Shown here piece by piece: positions 1,495 through 37,464 of a stretch of 48,195 nt of DNA. Position 1 is the stretch's first letter; every line of letters begins with the position of its first letter. The translations under genes and the position numbers were made by a program. Under the pieces are notes generated by a model. That model was not told the origin of the DNA and searched no databases. It was given only the letters and a program-made list of their open reading frames with translations. Where the stretch lies: assembly GCA_020247395.1 (NCBI GenBank), contig JADCJC010000018.1:1-48195 (forward strand), read 5' to 3'. This DNA comes from Rhodocyclaceae bacterium (GTDB lineage: Bacteria; Pseudomonadota; Gammaproteobacteria; Burkholderiales; Usitatibacteraceae).

Positions 1495-3777
1495 ATGAAA
1501 ATGCGTGACGACTTGAAGCAAGGCGCCCTCGACTATCACCGGTATCCGGGTCCCGGCAAAATTGAGATCACCGCGACCAAACCACTTGCCACGCAGCGCG
1601 ATCTTGCCCTTGCGTACACACCGGGCGTGGCCACAGTATGCGAGGAAATTGCGCAAAACCCGAGCGAAGCACGCAATCTCACCGCACGCGGCAACCTGGT
1701 TGCCGTCATCACCAACGGGACGGCCGTTCTGGGCCTCGGTGCGATCGGCCCGCTCGCAGCGAAGCCAGTGATGGAAGGCAAAGCCGTGTTGTTCAAGAAG
1801 TTTGCCGGCATTGACGTGTTCGACATCGAAGTCAATGAACTTGATCCGGACAAGCTGGTTGACATCATCGCCTCGCTTGAGCCCACCTTCGGCGGGATCA
1901 ACTTGGAAGACATCAAGGCACCGGAGTGCTTTTATGTGGAGAAAAAACTCCGCGAGCGAATGAAGATCCCGGTATTCCACGACGATCAACACGGCACAGC
2001 CATCATTGTCGGCGCGGCCATCTATAACGGCCTCAAAGTGGTGGGGAAAGACATATCCAAGGTCAAACTCGTCTCCTCCGGCGCGGGTGCGGCGGCGTTG
2101 GCGTGTCTGGATATGCTGGTCGCGCTCGGCATGAGGATGTCGAACATTTGGGTGACGGATATTGCGGGCGTGGTCTACCAGGGCCGCAAGGAGGAGATGG
2201 ATCCAAACAAGGAGCGCTACGCAAAAGTTACCGACGCACGCAAGCTCGGCGAGGTGATTGACAACGCCGATGTGTTTTTAGGGCTCTCTGCCGGCGGCGT
2301 GTTGAAGCAGGACATGGTCAAACGTATGGCTGCAAAGCCGCTGATCTTGGCGCTGGCAAATCCGACGCCCGAGATTCTGCCGGAGGAAATCCGTGCGGTG
2401 CGCGACGACGCCGTCATCGCCACCGGACGATCCGACTACCCCAACCAAGTGAACAACGTACTTTGTTTTCCGTTCATTTTCCGCGGCGCGCTTGATGTTG
2501 GTGCCACCTCGATTAATGAGGCGATGAAACTCGCCGCTGTGCAAGCCATCGCTGAACTCGCGCAAGCCGAGCAGTCGGACATCGTTGCGATGGCCTACGG
2601 TGAATCGTCGGTCTCTTTCGGCAAGGACTACTTGATTCCCCGCCCGTTTGATCCGCGCCTGATCTCCAAGGTTGCGCCGGCCGTCGCCAAAGCGGCGATG
2701 CAGTCGGGGGTTGCGACTTCACCGATCACCGATTGGGAAGCATATCACCAACGTCTGGATCAGTTTGTGTACCACTCCGGGCTTATCATGAAGCCGGTAT
2801 TCACCAAGGCCAAGCAGAATCCGAAACGGATTGTCTACGCGGAGGGTGAAGAAGAACGTGTGCTTCGCGCCGTGCAGGTGGTGGTGGATGACGGGCTCGC
2901 AAAACCGATCCTGATCGGTCGGCCGAAAGTACTCGAAAAACGCATTGAAAAATTCGGCCTGCGAATTCGTCCGGGTATCGATTTCGAAATCATTAATCCC
3001 GAGTATGACGAGCGTTATCGCGACTACTGGGAGCAGTATTACGCGCTCACGGCAAGACGCGGTGTCTCTGAACAATACGCCAAGATAGAAATGCGTCGTC
3101 GATTGACCCTGATCGGCGCGATGATGATGCATCGCGGCGAAGCGGACGGCATGATTTGCGGCACGTTTGGCACACACGCCCTGCACCTGCACTACATCGA
3201 CCAGGTGATCGGCCGCCGTGCAGGTGCCAAGCATTACTACGCGATGAATTTGTTGATGCTGCCAAAACGCACCGTGTTTATCTGCGACACCTACGTCAAT
3301 GAAAACCCGACGGCTGAACAGATTTGTGAAATGGCCATCTTGGCCGCCGAGGAGATTCGCCGTTTCGGCCTTGTGCCGAAGGTCGCATTACTCTCACACT
3401 CGTCATTTGGCACGTCTGACGCACCAACTGCGGTGAAAATGCGCAATGCACTTGCGCTGATTCAGGCGCAAGCGCCGGAACTGGAAGTTGAAGGCGAAAT
3501 GCATGGTGATGCGGCGTTAGCAGAGGACGTTCGCCAGGCTGCGATGCGCAACTCGCGACTCAAAGGTGAGGCCAACCTGCTGATCATGCCAACACTTGAT
3601 GCCGCTAATATCTCCTTTAATCTGCTCAAAACGGCTGCTGGTGGCGGCATTACCATCGGCCCAATTCTGTTAGGTGCCGCCAAGCCGGCACATATCGTCA
3701 CCCCAACCGCAACCGTTCGTCGCATCATCAACATGACAGCACTTGCCGTGGTGGATTCTCAGGCGACGCGCAAGTAA
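1495..3777 (+). CDS. maeB: NADP-dependent malic enzyme with phosphotransacetylase-like C-terminus
   Basis: Oxidatively decarboxylates malate to pyruvate, making NADPH in the cytoplasm. At 760 residues it matches the large bacterial MaeB class. The malic N-terminal domain covers roughly residues 1-155, with the catalytic tyrosine in [14 protein letters not shown] (about residue 41) and the lysine region [15 protein letters not shown]. The HDDQHGTA motif follows near residue 165, then a Rossmann domain with [12 protein letters not shown] near 190-205. From about residue 430 to the end comes a phosphate acetyl/butyryltransferase-like domain, including the [19 protein letters not shown] region. 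In family members that domain binds acetyl-CoA as an allosteric regulator and is not known to catalyse phosphotransfer. The ATG at 1495 has a GGAG site about 8 bases upstream. ldcA begins 13 bases after the stop, so the two may be cotranscribed. Confidence 0.95.
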
Positions 3778-29670: not shown

Positions 29671-30246
29671 TCAACCGGCATGAAGATCGGCTTGGGTGTC
29701 GATGTCGATTAACACTCCGGCATCGTCAACTGGCAACACCCGCACCGCCGCCGAATGATCCTGAACCACGGAGCGGGCCCCAGTGTCACCAGTGAGCGCG
29801 GTGAGTCGTTCAAAGTAGTCGCGGCCAAACCCCACCGGGTGGCCACGCTGCTGCCGATACTCAGGCACGATGATTGTTGACGTCGAGCGGATCTGTTCGG
29901 CTACATCGCGAACCGTTGACGGCAGCACGAATGGCATGTCGGCCAGCGCGATTAGCCATCCAGAAGCACTCGGAGTCGCCTTGACACCTGCGCCAATCGA
30001 AGTCGCCATGCCCTCGTCTGCGCGAGGATTAATCAGCAGTCGAGCACCTAACGCCGCAGCAATACGTTCGGCCGAGTCGACCAATTCAGCATCGTCGCGA
30101 ACCACGATCGTGACGTCAACTACCGCCCGGCGTATTGCGCGCGCGCTCGTCTCCAGAATCGTCTTGCCAGTGTCTAACTTGGCCAGCAGTTTTCTGCCAC
30201 CAAAACGCTCGCCTCGCCCCGCTGCCAAAAGAATGCCAGCAATCAC
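29671..30246 (-). CDS. MocA-like nucleotidyltransferase
   Basis: A 191-residue nucleotidyltransferase resembling MocA, which makes molybdopterin cytosine dinucleotide for xanthine-oxidase-type enzymes. The N-terminal nucleotide-binding loop LLAAGRGERFGGRKLLAKL is intact, and the metal aspartate lies in LIALADMPFV. The GHPVGFGRDYFERL substrate segment and DIDTQADL at the end are family features. It overlaps XdhC by four bases (ATGA), so they are cotranslated. Encoded with XdhC and once in one operon with the hydroxylase subunits upstream, it most likely matures their cofactor. That operon is now interrupted by an insertion sequence. Confidence 0.85.
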   Translation of the reverse strand: MIAGILLAAGRGERFGGRKLLAKLDTGKTILETSARAIRRAVVDVTIVVRDDAELVDSAERIAAALGARLLINPRADEGMATSIGAGVKATPSASGWLIALADMPFVLPSTVRDVAEQIRSTSTIIVPEYRQQRGHPVGFGRDYFERLTALTGDTGARSVVQDHSAAVRVLPVDDAGVLIDIDTQADLHAG

Positions 30247-31235
30247 GCGATACGATGCTGGCTTGCGTCACCTGCGGGTGCCGTAGCTGACAGGGTAATT
30301 TTGTTACGCGCCGCCACTAGTTCGGCTGCAATCGCCACCGCGATCTCCGGCGGGGTGCGGCTGCCGATCGCCAGTCCCACCGGCCCACGAAGCCTTTCGG
30401 TCTCGGCAGCGGAAACATCAAGTGTTTGTAGTCGGCGACGCCGTTCTTCACTGGTGGCCTTGGATCCAACCGCGCCGACATAAAAGGCCGGTGTTTTGAG
30501 TGCCTCCATCAACGCCATATCGTCGAGTTTGGGATCGTGTGATACCGCAACGACCACGGAACGTGCGTCTGGCTTGAAGGCGATCACGGCGTCATCTGGC
30601 ATGGCGTCAACAAACGACGTACCCGCCACACGCCAGGCTCGACGATATTCGTCTCTCGGGTCGCAAACACTCACTCGAAAATCGAGCGTCTTGGCGATCT
30701 CGGCAAGATAGACCGAGATCTCGGCGGCACCGACGATCAACATGCGCCAGCGCGGGCCGTGCAAACAGACAAAGCGCGCCTCGCTGATGTCCGTCTTGTC
30801 GCTCGCCAAGGCGTCACGGTAGGACCAGCCTCCGGTTGCCAAATCGACCTCGCGAAAAAACACATCGCCAGTCGAAATATGCGCCAGCAATTCCTCCACG
30901 TCTTGGAGGAGGGGTCGCGTTTCGATCAGCACCTCCAACACACCACCACAGGGCAGCCCATACCGCCGCGCGTCATCGCTGGTGACACCATAACGCTGGC
31001 GAATCGGCTGGCCATTCGCCGCGAAGAATTCGCCTCGACGCGCCAGTAAGTCGTCTTCGATACAACCACCCGAGACCGATCCAATCAATACGCCGTCATC
31101 GCGAATTACCAACATCGAACCCGGCGGACGCGGACTGGCACCGAAAGTTTGCGTAACCGTCACCAGCGCCACGGAATGGCCGGCTCGCAGCCAATCGCGC
31201 AAATGATGGAGGACGTCAAGATCTAGTGATTGCAT
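30243..31235 (-). CDS. XdhC family molybdenum-cofactor insertion protein
   Basis: XdhC-type proteins bind the molybdenum cofactor, promote its sulphuration and insert it into xanthine-dehydrogenase-family enzymes. This 330-residue protein has the N-terminal XdhC/CoxI domain with VTVTQTFGASPRPPGSMLVI and GSVSGGCIEDDLL, and the C-terminal Rossmann domain with MLIVGAAEISVYLAEIAKTL, VAVSHDPKLDDMALMEAL and FYVGAVGSKATSEERRRRL. The ATG at 31235 is followed by the fused overlap with the MocA-like gene. Upstream lie a hairpin repeat (31254-31293), a small frameshifted frame and the tail of the interrupted transporter gene. Confidence 0.92.
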   Translation of the reverse strand: MQSLDLDVLHHLRDWLRAGHSVALVTVTQTFGASPRPPGSMLVIRDDGVLIGSVSGGCIEDDLLARRGEFFAANGQPIRQRYGVTSDDARRYGLPCGGVLEVLIETRPLLQDVEELLAHISTGDVFFREVDLATGGWSYRDALASDKTDISEARFVCLHGPRWRMLIVGAAEISVYLAEIAKTLDFRVSVCDPRDEYRRAWRVAGTSFVDAMPDDAVIAFKPDARSVVVAVSHDPKLDDMALMEALKTPAFYVGAVGSKATSEERRRRLQTLDVSAAETERLRGPVGLAIGSRTPPEIAVAIAAELVAARNKITLSATAPAGDASQHRIA

Positions 31236-31253
31236 TCATTAAGCTCTTTTATT

Positions 31254-31293
31254 GACGGGCATCTTCAACCATTTATGGCTGGAAACGCCCGTC
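31254..31293. repeat. GACGGGC-type intergenic hairpin (copy D)
   Basis: Arms gacgggcatcttcaacca and tggctggaaacgcccgtc pair over 18 bases with four mismatches or wobble pairs around a ttta loop. It lies 18 bases upstream of the XdhC start. The right arm (tggctggaaa) is shared with the repeats at 45521 and 46955. It could affect translation or transcription of xdhC. Confidence 0.55.
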
Positions 31294-31310
31294 CCGTAAG
31301 GACTCTACTA

Positions 31311-31465
31311 TTATTGCTTAGATAAGTGGCGCGCACCGGATGAGTTGGCTTCAGTCAGCCGGAAAAACTGCTCGCCCTGCTGCATTTCGGCATAGGCGCA
31401 CCGGCTGCCGACCAGCGTGGCAAGCAGCACAAAAAAAACAACACCACGGCGGTTCGGTTCATCAC
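31311..31465 (-). other. Possible small exported-protein gene, frameshifted in a homopolymer
   Basis: Reading minus from an ATG at 31462 (GTG at 31465), a basic and hydrophobic start MNRTAVVLFF runs into an eight-T tract (31431-31438). In frame, the rest loses signal-peptide character and stops late. With one extra T the frame becomes VLLATLVGSRCAYAEMQQG and so on, a good signal peptide with AYA cleavage site, ending at a stop at 31311 after about 50 residues. This could be a decayed small gene, a sequencing error or programmed slippage. I do not recognise the protein. It lies between the transporter remnant and xdhC. Confidence 0.35.
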
Positions 31466-31506
31466 GGTTATGCGCGCAGTGCTGCGGTTGCTGTTGGACA
31501 GGGCGT

Positions 31507-31629
31507 CTATTTTGACGGGATTTGATCTTTGGTCGTGCGAAACGTTATCAGCATGAGGCCGAGTGCAAGCAAGGCGACGGCGGCGGCGGTCCAGCCGAGA
31601 CTCGCCATGCCATGGCCCGCAAGCATGAA
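31507..31629 (-). pseudogene. MFS transporter, 3' fragment separated by the insertion sequence
   Basis: Forty codons and a stop that encode FMLAGHGMASLGWTAAAV, LALGLMLITF and a short charged tail: a small turn, the last membrane helix and the C-terminus of an MFS transporter. The 5' fragment at 33174-34214 breaks off exactly where this helix is expected. Joining 33174 directly to 31629 gives a continuous frame (GGVT, then FMLAG). A separate ATG at 31635 with GGGAGG upstream exists only because of sequence at the insertion boundary. Confidence 0.8.
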
Positions 31630-31636
31630 AATCATC

Positions 31637-31645
31637 TAGCTGGCC
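31637..31645 (+). repeat. Left subterminal inverted repeat of the insertion sequence
   Basis: tagctggcc, an exact reverse complement of 33162-33170. It lies 7 bases inside the proposed left end, as in the IS1111 group. Confidence 0.7.
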
Positions 31646-31713
31646 TCCCGCTGCCGAGGGGGCAGCGGGGATAAAGTGAGTTTGCGAACTTACCTTTATC
31701 AACGGAGGCCAAG

Positions 31714-32733
31714 ATGAAATATAGCGCGATTGATTTGCATTCGAATAACAGTGTTGTCGTTGTCACCGACGAGCAGGATCGGGTGTTGGCACAGAAGCGA
31801 CTGCCGAATGACTTGTCGGTGATTGTGGCGTTTCTCGCCCCACATCAAAGCGAACTGGTTGGCGTGGTCGTTGAATCGACCTACAACTGGTATTGGCTGG
31901 TCGATGGCCTGATGGCCGCAGGCTTTGCCGTGAAGTTAGCCAATACCGCAGCCGTCAGAACTTACGATGGCCTCAAGCACAGTGGCGACGAAGCTGACGC
32001 TCGCCACTTGGCACAGATGCTGCGATTGAACATCCTGCCCACAGGCTACATTTGCCCACCGGCGAAGCGCGCGTTACGCGACTTGGCGCGCCGTCGACTG
32101 CAACTGGTACGCAATCGCACCCTGCACATTCTGGCCGTCGAGAACCAAGTCACGCGGCAGACCGGGCGCAATATTCGCAGCAACGACGTAAAGCGATTGA
32201 CGGCTGAGGCAGTCGATGGCTGGAAGCTACCGCCTGATGTGGCCACCGGCATCAAGGCCAACGTCGCCATCATTGGTGTACTCAACACCGAGATCGACAA
32301 ACTCGAATCCCGCCTAGATGCGGCAATCGCCGCCACTGACGAATGGAAGCTGATCAATACCGTGCCAGGCATTGGCAAGACCTTGGCGCGCGTGATCTTG
32401 CTGGAGATTGGCGAGATTGGCCGATTTGACGATGTCGGCTGCTTTGCCTCCTATGCGCGCTGCGTGGACAGTGCGCGCATGAGCAACGGCAAGAAGAAAG
32501 GCGAAGGCAATCGCAAGAATGGCAATAAATACTTGAGCTGGGCGTTTGTCGAGGCCGCGCACTTTGCAGCACGCTTCTACCCTGAGGCTAAGCGCTTCTA
32601 CCAAAAGAAGTTGGCCACGACCAATGGGGCGGTGGCGACCAAGGCCCTGGCGCACAAGCTGGCGAGGGCGAGTTACCATGTGCTCAAGACCGGCAAGTCA
32701 TTCGAGATGCAACGCTGTTTTGCCCGCATGTAG
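31714..32733 (+). CDS. IS110-family transposase, intact
   Basis: A 339-residue transposase of the DEDD/serine type. The N-terminal RuvC-like domain has Asp7 in AIDLHS, Glu54 in VVVESTYNWYW, and Asp92 and Asp95 in HSGDEADARHLA. The C-terminal Tnp domain has the VPGIGKTLARVILLEIGEI helix-hairpin-helix-like motif and the region CVDSARMSNGKKKGEG, whose serines (Ser253 and neighbour) are candidates for the nucleophile, with GNKYLSWAFVEAAH after it. All motifs look intact and the length is normal, so the element may still be active. The ATG at 31714 has AACGGAGG upstream. It is transcribed against the direction of the interrupted operon. Confidence 0.93.
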   Translation: MKYSAIDLHSNNSVVVVTDEQDRVLAQKRLPNDLSVIVAFLAPHQSELVGVVVESTYNWYWLVDGLMAAGFAVKLANTAAVRTYDGLKHSGDEADARHLAQMLRLNILPTGYICPPAKRALRDLARRRLQLVRNRTLHILAVENQVTRQTGRNIRSNDVKRLTAEAVDGWKLPPDVATGIKANVAIIGVLNTEIDKLESRLDAAIAATDEWKLINTVPGIGKTLARVILLEIGEIGRFDDVGCFASYARCVDSARMSNGKKKGEGNRKNGNKYLSWAFVEAAHFAARFYPEAKRFYQKKLATTNGAVATKALAHKLARASYHVLKTGKSFEMQRCFARM

Positions 32734-33161
32734 GGCTGGCGAACAAAGTTTGGCAAGGGGGTGTTGAGCCAGAAATGGGGTCTGGTGCCGAGGCGAACAT
32801 CACCCGGTAACCACCAGCCTGAATGGACACGCCTCCTTTCCACCTGACCAGTTTCCGATTCGCCTGTGAAATGAGCCCACTGCGGTTTGGCACCAAAGGG
32901 GAGCCACAATACTGAACGAAACCATCCATGGACATGACACGGCACCAACGTTCTTCTGGGGCAAGCTTGCTTGCCAGGGCTGCGTGCAGAACAGCGCACG
33001 CGGCTTGATCCTGATGGGTGACTGGCGCGATTCGGGTTTTACCCGAGTAGGCAGCCAATGTATCGAAGAAACGGATGTGATGAAGAAACTTGGAACAGGA
33101 GCAGTATTTGAATTAGCCTGATCGCATCAACAGCGAGAAATTCGTTCGCTTACTTGACACG
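32734..33161 (+). other. Right non-coding end of the insertion sequence
   Basis: A stretch of over 400 bases with no convincing gene on either strand. In IS1111-type elements this end encodes the guide RNA that selects the target. Three consecutive hairpins lie between 32960 and 33046; see the separate entry. Confidence 0.6.
32960..33046 (+). ncRNA. Candidate guide (seek/bridge) RNA segment of the insertion sequence
   Basis: Three short hairpins stand in a row: ggcaag/cttgcc (32960-32975), gcgtgc/gcacgc (32982-33001) and tcgggt/acccga (33032-33046). Between and within them are two short matches to the insertion site. tgcttgc (32968-32974) equals the bottom strand of the left flank at 31619-31625. 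atgggtgac (33014-33022) equals the right junction at 33171-33179. One bottom-strand and one top-strand match is what guide RNAs of this family show. The matches are short and may be chance; the RNA ends are not known. Confidence 0.35.
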
Positions 33162-33170
33162 GGCCAGCTA
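33162..33170 (-). repeat. Right subterminal inverted repeat of the insertion sequence
   Basis: ggccagcta, an exact reverse complement of 31637-31645, 3 bases inside the proposed right end. Confidence 0.7.
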
Positions 33171-34214
33171 ATGGGTGACCCCGCCAACAAAAGCACCGAG
33201 GGCTTGGCCAACATAAACCCCGCTGGCGTGCAGCGTGATGCCCGCATTTGCCGACGTGCCCGCCACTAGGATGACCCGGGTTTGCTGCGCGGGCTGGAAC
33301 GCAAAACCGAACACACCCCACAGCGCCAACACCAGCATCACCAGCGGAACCGACGCGGGAATCCAGCTAAAACTGGAATGAATCAGGGCAAGCGCGATCA
33401 GCAACACCACCATCAATTTATGGTTGTTAAAGCGCTGCATGAGTTCGCCGGAACCGAACACACCAATGGTGCCAAATAACCCAAACCAAAGCAACATGCC
33501 GGTCACCGCCTGCTGGGATAACGCGAGCGTTACGGTTAGCCAAGCAGTCAGATAGGTGTAGACGACAAACACCGCGGCCATTTGCAGCACCACAATAAAC
33601 ACCACCGCCATCTTGCGCCAATCGATTAGAAAGGCACCGAGCACCGCGAAATTGCTCGGCGGTACCCGGATGCCGCGCGGCAGGTATTCGCCTACCATTA
33701 ACGCGGCGGTGGCACTGACGCCCGCCGCGTACCAAAGCGCCATATGCCAGTCACCAAGGGCGGCGATCATTACGCCAAGCGGTAAGCCGATCACATTGGA
33801 TAAGGCAAACCCACCGAATACTTTGCTGATGGCCTTGCCGCGCGCCTCGGGTGTCGTCAGAAAGGCCACCACAGATAAGGTCGTCGGCGTGACCACGGCG
33901 CTGGCGACCGCAAACACGACGCGCGAGATGAGTACCACCGTGTAGTCGGTAGAGCAGGCACCAACGACACTTGCAACCGTCATCAGCCATAGACCACCGA
34001 GCAAAACCAGTTTGCGATCAATCCGCCAGAGCGCGGCACCGAGCAGCGGGGCACCAAGCGCATACGCAATCGACGAATAGCCCAACAGGGCGCCAGCCTG
34101 CGGCAAACTCACTACCAAACTAGCGGCGATCTGCGGCAACACACCCGCGATGAGAAGTCCGCCAGTACCGACGCCAAAATTGGCAAGCGCCAAGGTAAAG
34201 GTGATCAGCTTCAT
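33168..34214 (-). pseudogene. MFS transporter, 5' fragment interrupted by the insertion sequence
   Basis: Encodes about eleven of the twelve membrane helices of a drug/metabolite-type MFS permease: FGVGTGGLLIAGVLPQIAAS in helix 1, GYSSIAYALGAPLLGAALWR in helix 2 and its cytoplasmic loop, and VGQALGAFVGGVT at the break. The native sequence ends at 33174; the last codon and stop (33168-33173) come from the element. With the fragment at 31507-31629 the original would be 387 residues. The start is taken as ATG 34214, at the first helix; a GTG at 34250 is possible. It follows the molybdopterin subunit in the operon, so the carrier may have moved that enzyme's substrate or product. Without its last helix it is probably not functional. 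Confidence 0.85.
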
Positions 34215-34282
34215 GTCTGGAAAAACCAAACGCCGCAACGGCGATGACACACCGCCGCGGCGCTACCGGGTTGGCGCTCGCG

Positions 34283-36475
34283 CTAGGCTTTTAGCGAAGC
34301 AAGGTCAAACGGCAACGTACGCAGGCGTTTGCCGGTCAATGCAAATATCGCATTGGAAATGGCCGGCGCGATCGGCGGCAGGCCCGGCTCTCCAACGCCG
34401 GTAGGTGTCTCACCGCCGGGCACGATATACACCTCAACCTTTGGCATCTCGGCCATACGCAATAAGGGATAGTTGTGGAAGTTCGATTGCTCAACCACAC
34501 CGTCCTTGAGCGTAATCTTTCCATACAATGCGGCGCTCATGCCATACACCGCCGAGCTTTCAACTTGTGCCGCAACCGTCAGCGGATTGACCGCCAAGCC
34601 ACAATCGATGGCGGAGACAATGCGATGCAGCTTGAGCTCGCCCTTGTCCATCGAAACTTCGACGACGTGGGCAACAACGGAGCCAAACGACTCGTGTACC
34701 GCCACGCCGCGCGCTCTACCCTTCGGCAGGGCGCTTGCCCAGCCAGCTTTCTCCGCCGCCAGGTTGAGCGTTTTGAGCACCTTCGGATGTTTGCCCAGAT
34801 AGACGCGCCGGAACGCAACCGGATCTTGACCGGCCAGTTGGGCCAAGTCATCCATCGCGGTCTCCATCGCATACGCAGTGTGTGAGTGGCCGACGGAACG
34901 CCAGAACAAAACCGGAACGCCGATTTTGGTGGTGTGCAAGGTGGCATGCAGGTTGGGAATGTCATACGGAGTATCGACAATACCCTCCATGCTGCTGCCG
35001 TCAATTCCGTCTTTCACGAACGCCTGCTCAAACGGTGTCCCGGCAACCAACGACTGTCCCACGACGGTGTGATTCCAAGCGGAGATCTTGTTGCTCGCAT
35101 CCAAACCGGCTTCAATACGATGCACGTACATCGGCCGATACGACCCCGCCTTCATGTCATCTTCGCGTGTCCAAACCATCTTTACCGGCACGCCGACCCT
35201 TTTGGCAATCGCAACTGCTTCGACGACGTAATCAGAACTTAGGTTGGTGCGACGACCAAATCCGCCGCCTGCCAGCATGGTGTTGAGTTTTACGTTCGCC
35301 GGAGGCACATCCGCCGCTTTGGCGGCGGCAAGAACGTCGAGGGTTTGCAACTGCGAACCGACCCATAGCTCACACTTGTCGCCGCTGACCGATACCGTGC
35401 AGCTCAGCGGCTCCATGGCTGCATGCGCCAAATATGGCATCTCAAATTCAGCAACCAGTGTCTTTGCCGCGCCCTTGAGCAGGTCCGGGTTGCCTTTTTT
35501 CGCTACCAGCCCGGGGGTTCTTGCTGTCTGTCGATAATTGTTCGACATGGCAACGGAGTCCGCCTTACTGCCAGGCTCCAGATCCCACTCAATTTGCAAC
35601 GCATCACGCCCTACCTTCGCCGCCCAAAACGATTTGGCGACCACGGCAATGCCGGAATCGAGCTGCACTACGTGTGTGATGCCCGGGATGCCATTAACTT
35701 TATCGGCGTTAAACTTGACCGCCCGCGCACCAAAAATTGGCGGATGGGCAACCACCGCCGTGTGCAAATTCGGGATCTGTTTAGCGGTAAGGTCAAGACC
35801 GAAACGCGCCGTACCGTTCACCTTTGCCGGCGCATCAATTCGACGGGTCGGTTTGCCGATAATGGTGAAATCCTTTGCCGACTGCAGCACCACTTTCTCA
35901 GGTGTCGGCAACTTAGCCGCCTCTTCGGCAAGTTCGCCGTAGCCGGCCTTTTTCCCGCCCGGGCCAGTGACCATGCCGTTCGCAGCACGACACTGGCCAG
36001 CAGCTACCTTCCAGCGGTTAGCCGCAGCCGTCACCAACATTGTCCGCGCCATCGCCCCGACAGCGCGCAGCTGTTCCCACGAGTTGGATACGGACGACGA
36101 TCCGCCGGTAATTTGCATGCCAAAACTGCTGTGCGCATAGACCGGGGCGGCGGGTGCCAGCTCCGCACGGATTTTTGTCCAATCACATTCCAACTCTTCG
36201 GCGAGCAACATCGGCAGTGAGGTCATGACACCCTGCCCAAACTCTAAATGTTTGACCTGAACCGTGACGGTGCCATCAAGTGCGATACGTAGAAACGCAT
36301 TGGGTTGGTTGAGATTCGGTGCTGGCGCTGCTTGCGCCAAGGCAAGTTTGTTGCCAAGACTCAAGTTGAAACCAATCACCAGTCCACCACCGGTCGCGGC
36401 GCTGACCTTTAGAAAATCACGGCGTGAGGTGTTTGGCACGGCTCTAGATTTAGCTGCTGTGAACAATTTATCCAT
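34283..36475 (-). CDS. Xanthine-dehydrogenase-family molybdopterin subunit (isoquinoline 1-oxidoreductase beta-like)
   Basis: The catalytic subunit (730 residues) of a molybdenum hydroxylase that oxidises an aldehyde or N-heterocycle. A twin-arginine signal ([11 protein letters not shown], about residues 16-26) shows export as a folded complex. The cofactor-binding features are [57 protein letters not shown], and [13 protein letters not shown] near the end, whose Glu696 is the expected catalytic glutamate. Enzymes of this type normally use molybdopterin cytosine dinucleotide, consistent with the MocA-like gene in the operon. It starts 9 bases after the 2Fe-2S subunit. The substrate is unknown. 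No cytochrome gene is present nearby to accept electrons. Confidence 0.92.
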
Positions 36476-36484
36476 GTAGTCCGC

Positions 36485-37000
36485 CTATGCCTTTACCGAT
36501 TTTCTTGCCGCCGCAGGAGCGCCGGCAGGCTTCACAGAGGCGGCCGGTTTCAAACCCGCAGCAACCTTGATCGCCGCACGAACACGGTTGTAGGTACCGC
36601 AACGACACACATTGCCGCTCATCGCCGCATCAATGTCCGCATCCGATGGGACTTTGTTTTTGGTCAACAACGCGGCGGCGGCCATGATCTGGCCGGATTG
36701 GCAGTAGCCACACTGGACCACATCTTCGGCAATCCAAGCGTCCTGAACCTTCTTGCCGACGGCAGACTTGCCGACGACTTCGATAGTCGTCACTTTTTTG
36801 CCGACAACTGCTGATATCGGCGTTGAACACGAGCGCGTCGGCTCGCCGTTAACGTGTACCGTACACGCGCCGCATAGCGCCATACCGCAGCCATATTTGG
36901 TGCCGGTTAACTGCAGGTTATCGCGCAAAAACCAAAGAAGAGGGGTAGAGGGATCGACGTTGGTCGAAATTCGTTCGCCATTGACGGTAATCAAAATCAT
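36485..37000 (-). CDS. 2Fe-2S subunit of the molybdenum hydroxylase (isoquinoline 1-oxidoreductase alpha-like)
   Basis: A 171-residue electron-transfer subunit with two [2Fe-2S] clusters. The plant-ferredoxin-type cluster uses Cys38, Cys43, Cys46 and Cys58 ([14 protein letters not shown], then RSC). The helical C-terminal cluster uses Cys97, Cys100, Cys132 and Cys134 ([18 protein letters not shown]). An alanine/proline-rich tail of about 25 residues follows the conserved domain. It has no signal of its own and would be exported with the Tat-bearing large subunit. The ATG at 37000 has GGAG upstream; the open frame to 37300 carries no conserved residues. It is the first gene of the operon. Confidence 0.93.
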
Positions 37001-37464
37001 AAATGACTCCAAAAGAGAACCACCCCGGCGACATAGCCGAGGCATCGGCGTGCAAAACTTACGTTTGCATTCTAACCGAGGCTCAGTGCCTGTCTGAGCA
37101 ACAGCCGTATTGGCGCGATTGGGGGGCAATCCAAAAGTGCGTCGCCGCGGCCAACAACGGCGGGGGTTGTGCCGGGCTGGGTGGCAGCCGTTCATGACCA
37201 ATCGATCCTCCGATCGACCGAGGTCCAGCGCGGTTGCGTAAATGAGCTGGGATGACGACAAGATAGTGGTTTCCAATAGTAACCACTGACAAAAGTCCAC
37301 TCAGGACGGCTATCTTCAGGCGATACGCGTCGGGACAGCCCGCCCGAGCTTATTGTTTTACTACACTTGACGTTGTCATAATACTCTCGCCCAGCAGATT
37401 GAATTTTTGCGCAGTTGGCGCATCTATAAAGGCATGTTGCGTAACTTAAACTGACCAACGACCA
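37001..37464. promoter_or_regulatory. Divergent intergenic region, hydroxylase operon and lipoprotein hydrolase
   Basis: A 464-bp gap without a credible gene. It must hold promoters for both directions. For the plus strand, ttgttt at 37353 and cataat at 37377 with an 18-bp spacer could be a promoter, 83 bases before the hydrolase start; this is weak. No clear operator or RNA structure is seen. Confidence 0.3.

What the first reader, a model, noticed from the sequence alone, without database searches (positions are those of the whole stretch)
31507..34214. An IS1111-type element splits an MFS gene, and removing it restores the frame exactly
The MFS frame on the minus strand ends abruptly after VGQALGAFVGGVT. 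The missing last helix (FMLAGHGMASLGWTAAAV onward) lies in the same orientation beyond the transposase gene. Inverted repeats of 9 bp were found at 31637 and 33162. With the IS1111-group offsets (7 bp left, 3 bp right) the element is 31630-33173. Joining 33174 to 31629 then gives one open frame of 387 residues, a normal MFS length. Shifting a single boundary by one base breaks the frame, so the frame supports the boundaries.
Basis: partly seen in the sequence, partly recalled or inferred. Interest (0 to 1): 0.75.

Follow-up and report, generated by a model that had tools for sequence, protein, structure and literature searches.

The report
Jumping gene splits transporter gene
A mobile DNA element of a known RNA-guided kind has cut a bacterial transporter gene in two; a sister species still has the gene whole, which shows where the element really begins and ends and corrects the first guess by six bases.

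Summary
The insertion is real. A 339-aa IS110/IS1111-type transposase (31714-32733) sits in an element that splits an MFS transporter gene lying between a molybdenum-hydroxylase subunit gene and xdhC. One same-genus genome (G013) has the locus uninterrupted, about 94% DNA identity on both sides, with a continuous frame. That empty site corrects the ends: the inserted DNA is 1550 bp (for example 31628-33177), not 1544 bp (31630-33173), placed at one TG (TGA stands at both junctions). The frame could not show this: 170 of 961 boundary pairs within 15 bp stay open. A second empty site, for a relative at 64% transposase identity in another genus, also has a single TG. In the non-coding region downstream of tnp, the two bases after a conserved GGGTG equal the two bases right of the junction TG in 48 of 60 elements; of 29 disjoint pairs with different RNA bases, 21 match in both members and none is swapped. 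No left-flank guide was found. Verdict: an ordinary, recent insertion of a known type, with the ends mis-set.

The parts
31628..33177 (.). Inserted element, 1550 bp, counted with the right-hand TG; 31626-33175, 31627-33176 and 31629-33178 are equivalent because TGA stands at both junctions
   Evidence: Empty site in G013
31714..32733 (+). IS110-family transposase gene, 339 aa
   Evidence: PF02371 6e-16, PF01548 3.4e-14; NF033542 176 bits, cut-off 140
31637..31645 (+). Left subterminal inverted repeat TAGCTGGCC
33162..33170 (-). Right subterminal inverted repeat (GGCCAGCTA on +)
31626..31628 (.). TGA at the left junction; TG is the shared core
33176..33178 (.). TGA at the right junction; TG is the shared core
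33178..34250 (-).
   Evidence: PF07690 7.3e-32; colinear with G013
31507..31627 (-). 3' part of the split MFS gene: last 39 residues and stop
32936..33080 (+). Candidate guide-RNA region in the non-coding right end; limits are my choice
   Evidence: Folding z -3.2 for this stretch, but -0.75 for 32936-33030 and -0.17 for 33030-33175
33011..33022 (+). CTGATGGGTGAC: conserved motif whose last two bases vary with the two bases right of the junction TG

Best explanation
A 1550-bp insertion sequence of the IS110 superfamily, IS1111-like (short left end, long non-coding right end downstream of tnp, subterminal inverted repeats), inserted recently at a single TG inside an MFS transporter gene. Shown: the empty site, the single TG, the transposase family, the same end structure in other copies. 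Shown statistically: a segment of the non-coding region varies with the two bases right of the TG. Inferred: the element moves as a circle by RNA-guided DEDD recombination, an RNA from the right end reads the core TG and the right flank, and the shortened transporter (360 aa from the GTG, last 39 residues lost, two residues T and H read from the junction and element) does not work.
For: Transposase family. Gap-free colinearity of both flanks with G013, meeting at the same TGA. Continuous 385-aa frame in G013 from the same ATG. Second empty site with one TG (L155 and L158 of G489 against L033). Ends conserved in relatives with unlike flanks. 14 right junctions of close copies in the genus. RNA-flank link: 50 of 58, 49 of 57 and 54 of 57, 48 of 60 and 21 of 29 pairs. 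Element copies in the two species 97.8% alike against 93.7-93.9% for the flanks and mostly synonymous differences in the gene point to a recent event.
Against: One empty site for this very element. The core is not always TG: L034 has CG on the left, L013, L037, L066 and L076 have CG and L072 has AG on the right. No guide for the left flank was found. 8 of 29 pairs are mixed. No reads, RNA data or circle junction.
Confidence: 0.92

Rival explanations
1. The reader's ends (31630-33173, 1544 bp, 7 and 3 bp beyond the repeats) are right, and G013 lost 6 bp between two TGA at this very place.
For: The 7/3 rule is published for IS1111 (PMC11187229, passage); TGAAGGTGA to TGA is a plausible deletion; the frame stays open. 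Three of four readable MFS homologues have one residue more than G013 a few positions further on, so the protein alignment alone does not settle it.
Against: The second empty site, in an unrelated gene and genus, also shows one TG and no extra 6 bp. None of the four homologues has two more residues at the junction.
Confidence: 0.05
2. Assembly chimera: the element was wrongly placed in the MFS gene.
For: Draft of 133 contigs; contig C97 ends inside a similar right end.
Against: Both flanks are colinear with one G013 contig for kilobases and meet at the same TGA.
Confidence: 0.02
3. Two separate genes: the MFS protein ends naturally at GGVT and the 3' piece is unrelated.
For: The frame does stop there in the window.
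Against: G013 reads through as one frame over both pieces, and four of five homologues found in other genera continue past this point; the fifth, L125, gave only a short frame.
Confidence: 0.01

Closest known systems
IS1111 group with seekRNA (ISEc11, ISPa11, ISKpn4; PMC11187229: abstract, passages and sections 9 and 13 seen)
   Same: DEDD transposase, long non-coding region downstream of tnp, subterminal inverted repeats, precise insertion, a stretch of the non-coding region with the top-strand sequence of the right side of the target
   Different: Exact repeat of only 9 bp against 11-13 bp reported there; the 7/3-bp extensions do not fit that repeat; only the right-side guide was found here
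IS621 and bridge RNA (PMC11208160: passages seen)
   Same: Related recombinase (7.2e-13); a dinucleotide core common to target and element (TG here, CT in IS621)
   Different: In IS621-type elements the RNA lies mostly in the left end, upstream of the recombinase gene; other core; no long subterminal repeats

Membership tests
IS110 superfamily | DEDD N-terminal domain and Transposase_20 C-terminal domain | tested here: met
   PF01548 and PF02371; NF033542 above cut-off. E54, D92, D95 and S257 are invariant in 8 sequences, D7 is not (L072 has G); that these are the catalytic residues is recalled
IS1111 group | Longer non-coding region downstream of tnp | tested here: met
   444 bp downstream (32734-33177) against 86 bp upstream (31628-31713) with the ends
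IS1111 group | Subterminal inverted repeats (11-13 bp in PMC11187229; 7-17 bp in PMC11208160) | tested here: inconclusive
   9 bp exact; 13 bp only with three mismatches (read from the sequence)
IS1111 group | Extensions of 7 bp left and 3 bp right beyond the repeats | tested here: inconclusive
   Not met with the 9-bp repeat. Met only if the 13-bp imperfect repeat is used and TG is counted at both ends, in which case one TG must stay behind
IS1111 group | No bases added at the target | tested here: met
   Two empty sites: each carries one TG, each insertion has TG at both ends; this can equally be written as a 2-bp duplication or a shared core
IS1111 group | Non-coding region holds matches to both strands of the target | tested here: inconclusive
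   Right side supported; left side not found in 52 elements
IS1111 group | RNA made and bound by the transposase; circular intermediate | not testable with these tools
   Needs RNA sequencing and PCR

The most novel reading that the evidence does not exclude
This IS1111 lineage reads its target asymmetrically: the guide specifies the TG core and bases to its right, while the left flank is read weakly or not at all. That would explain the unlike left flanks (AAGCA, AAGCG, GTCGC, ATCGC at the four distinct left junctions seen in the genus), the missing left guide, and a landing inside a coding gene that offers TGACCCC.
Probability: 0.15. Interest if true: 0.45.

Novelty: new member of a known kind. 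Interest (0 to 1): 0.22.

Why it matters
It is a worked case in which an empty site, not the reading frame or a rule of thumb, fixes the ends of an IS1111-like element. PMC11187229 (section 13 read) says that wrong ends spoil target logos in this family and that uninterrupted targets or circle junctions are needed; here are two uninterrupted targets. Otherwise the biology is ordinary: a mobile element broke one transporter gene in one species.

Tried and rejected
Left-flank guide: tested as covariation in alignment columns, at fixed offsets and as alignment-free pairing or identity of eight left bases, with and without the core, with seven stretches of the non-coding region in 52 elements against 2000 permutations. 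The best of 42 values was z 2.7; I treat this as negative. Matches that I picked by eye (CACGC, CAGCTTGA) did not hold across elements.

Empty sites were sought for four relatives. L130: 12 genomes of that genus, only its own matched. L132: 8 genomes, only its own. L023: 3 of 98 genomes matched, its own and two that do not reach the junction. L033: 13 of 98 matched, its own included; the site was read in two copies of G489 (L155, L158), and nine further homologues printed in the same orientation keep the same spacing by eye (L142, L144, L146-L150, L154, L156).

Rfam gave three matches, all far below the gathering scores. The plasmid search found 63 records, none covering 80% of the query; the listed transposase matches are at 64-71%. 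The idea that sister copies sit in a repeated extragenic sequence was tried with TGDCCCCWTTTA: 15 sites in G010 (2 in the reversed control), 2 in G000 (2), 2 in G013 (1). It is suggestive for G010 only.

The MFS gene was not filed as a drug pump: the best NCBIfam match, Cmx/CmrA, has 161.7 bits against a cut-off of 400.

Selection and dropped rows: the loci are the best 80 of 382 plus those; one search lists 86 element rows with at least one recognisable end. Searches left out L093, L045, L070 and L095 (masked bases, spurious anchor or doubtful end), one search also L028, and all three left out rows without the anchor motif or a readable flank. One search did not exclude L070 and L095. The end searches used motifs holding TGA or GGGTG with 2-3 mismatches allowed, so the counts of TG are partly built in.

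Full report
What was claimed.

The element. The gene 31714-32733 encodes a 339-aa IS110-family transposase (PF02371 6e-16, PF01548 3.4e-14; NF033542 176 bits, cut-off 140). Its solved relatives by sequence are the IS621 and ISCro4 transposases (7.2e-13 and 1.5e-11). The exact subterminal repeat is 9 bp, a length that chance also gives in this stretch; relatives keep it in place. In the window's own assembly the only other match found is at the end of contig C97, whose last 56 bases match 33127-33182. Of 28 family genomes five have a match at 1e-8: the window's own, G010, G013 and G014 of the same genus, and a weaker one in G009. L003, from a record titled 'Rhodocyclaceae bacterium' MAG, shows the same letters as G013:C88 at the left end, so the host is taken to be near that MAG (inference).

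The empty site. Of the 27 other family genomes one, G013, has the MFS gene at E<=1e-20, at 97% aa identity and with an open frame. Its DNA aligns without gaps to window 35744-33176 and on to 31628-30127, at 93.7 and 93.9% identity, the two alignments overlapping by three bases, TGA. G013 therefore lacks 1550 bp. From the ATG at 34214 the uninterrupted length is 385 residues, the same as in G013.

Why the frame did not show it. 1544 and 1550 differ by six and neither leaves a stop. The frame excludes many pairs but does not choose one.

Could G013 have lost six bases instead? The MFS alignment helps only in part. Five distant homologues were found in 250 genomes of the order (30-33% identity). 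L125 gave only a short frame. Of the other four, L126 aligns across the junction with no extra residue, and L123, L124 and L127 have one residue more a few positions on; none has two at the junction. The stronger test is a second empty site. A relative of the element (L033, 64% transposase identity, a Bradyrhizobium record) reads GCAC-TG|AAGATC at its left end and GGG|TG-TCGCCG at its right end. In another genome of that genus, G489, two copies of the target (L155, L158) read GCAC-TG-TCGCCG, and nine further homologues keep this spacing. A single TG thus holds at two unrelated sites.

The ends in this lineage. Left ends of relatives mostly read TGAAAATCATCTAGC after unlike flanks, right ends GGCTAATGGG|TG before unlike flanks. 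Exceptions: CG on the left in L034; CG on the right in L013, L037, L066 and L076; AG in L072. At 14 right junctions of close copies in the genus the base after TG is A in 9, G in 4 and T in 1, then C in 14 (three of the 14 lie in one tandem array, and the search motif contained GGGTG). The 7/3 rule can be kept only with a 13-bp repeat that has three mismatches and with TG counted at both ends (read from the sequence).

A guide in the non-coding region. One strong link to the flanks appeared: the base after GGGTG in a conserved motif (CTGATGGGTG in the window) equals the first base right of the junction TG in 50 of 58 elements (22.7 expected). Without alignment it is 49 of 57, and 54 of 57 for the second base (46.7 expected). 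To allow for kinship I took disjoint closest pairs that differ in the RNA base: 29 pairs, 21 with both members matching their own flank, none swapped, 8 mixed. The RNA base changed at least 11 times and the flank base 14 times on the transposase tree; both bases match in 48 of 60 elements. This fits the bottom-strand match of seekRNAs (PMC11187229, section 9). The 145 nt 32936-33080 fold better than shuffles (z -3.2; 1 of 200 as good), but the shorter 32936-33030 (z -0.75) and the rest of the region (z -0.17) do not. No guide for the left flank was found, so the published two-sided scheme is only half shown here.

The gene that was hit. The minus-strand order is [2Fe-2S] subunit (36485-37300), molybdopterin-binding subunit (34283-36475), MFS, XdhC (30243-31235), MobA-like transferase (29671-30246). 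The transporter thus sits inside a molybdenum-hydroxylase gene cluster; that it serves this enzyme is inference. It lost its last 39 residues; two residues, T and H, and a stop are read at the junction and in the element. Codon differences to G013 are mostly synonymous: 51 against 11 of 356 codons in the 5' part, 1 against 1 of 40 in the 3' part. Together with 97.8% identity between element copies in the two species this suggests a recent insertion. Loss of function and any effect on xdhC are inferred.

Verdict. A real, probably recent and ordinary insertion of a known, RNA-guided kind.

Noticed in passing
L135 (G010:C1:1026000-1032000), minus strand, about 3188-3294; also L011 4401-4472: Three right ends of the element stand in tandem, 56 and 40 bp apart, each followed by its own TGxCCCC flank and without a transposase gene between them; L011 has two right ends 71 bp apart. 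How such solo right ends arise is unexplained.
   Followed up: partly
L089, L114, L075, L062: right flanks after the junction TG: By eye, the right flank of several elements is followed at once by a near-copy of itself (for example TGACCCCTGATGTTGG then ACCCCTGATGTTCG). It may reflect targets in short repeated DNA; no count was made.
   Followed up: no
G013 contigs C2, C14, C57, C71, C88; window assembly C97: Contigs that start or stop inside the element, which suggests several unassembled copies in G013 and at least one more in the window's genome.
   Followed up: partly
window 33183-33230: Two adjacent 24-bp stretches, 75% alike, in the MFS coding sequence beside the insertion point; G013 has similar letters there, so the element probably did not cause them.
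   Followed up: no
window 29671-37300: Molybdenum-hydroxylase gene cluster: [2Fe-2S] subunit, molybdopterin-binding subunit, MFS transporter, XdhC, MobA-like transferase.
   Followed up: partly
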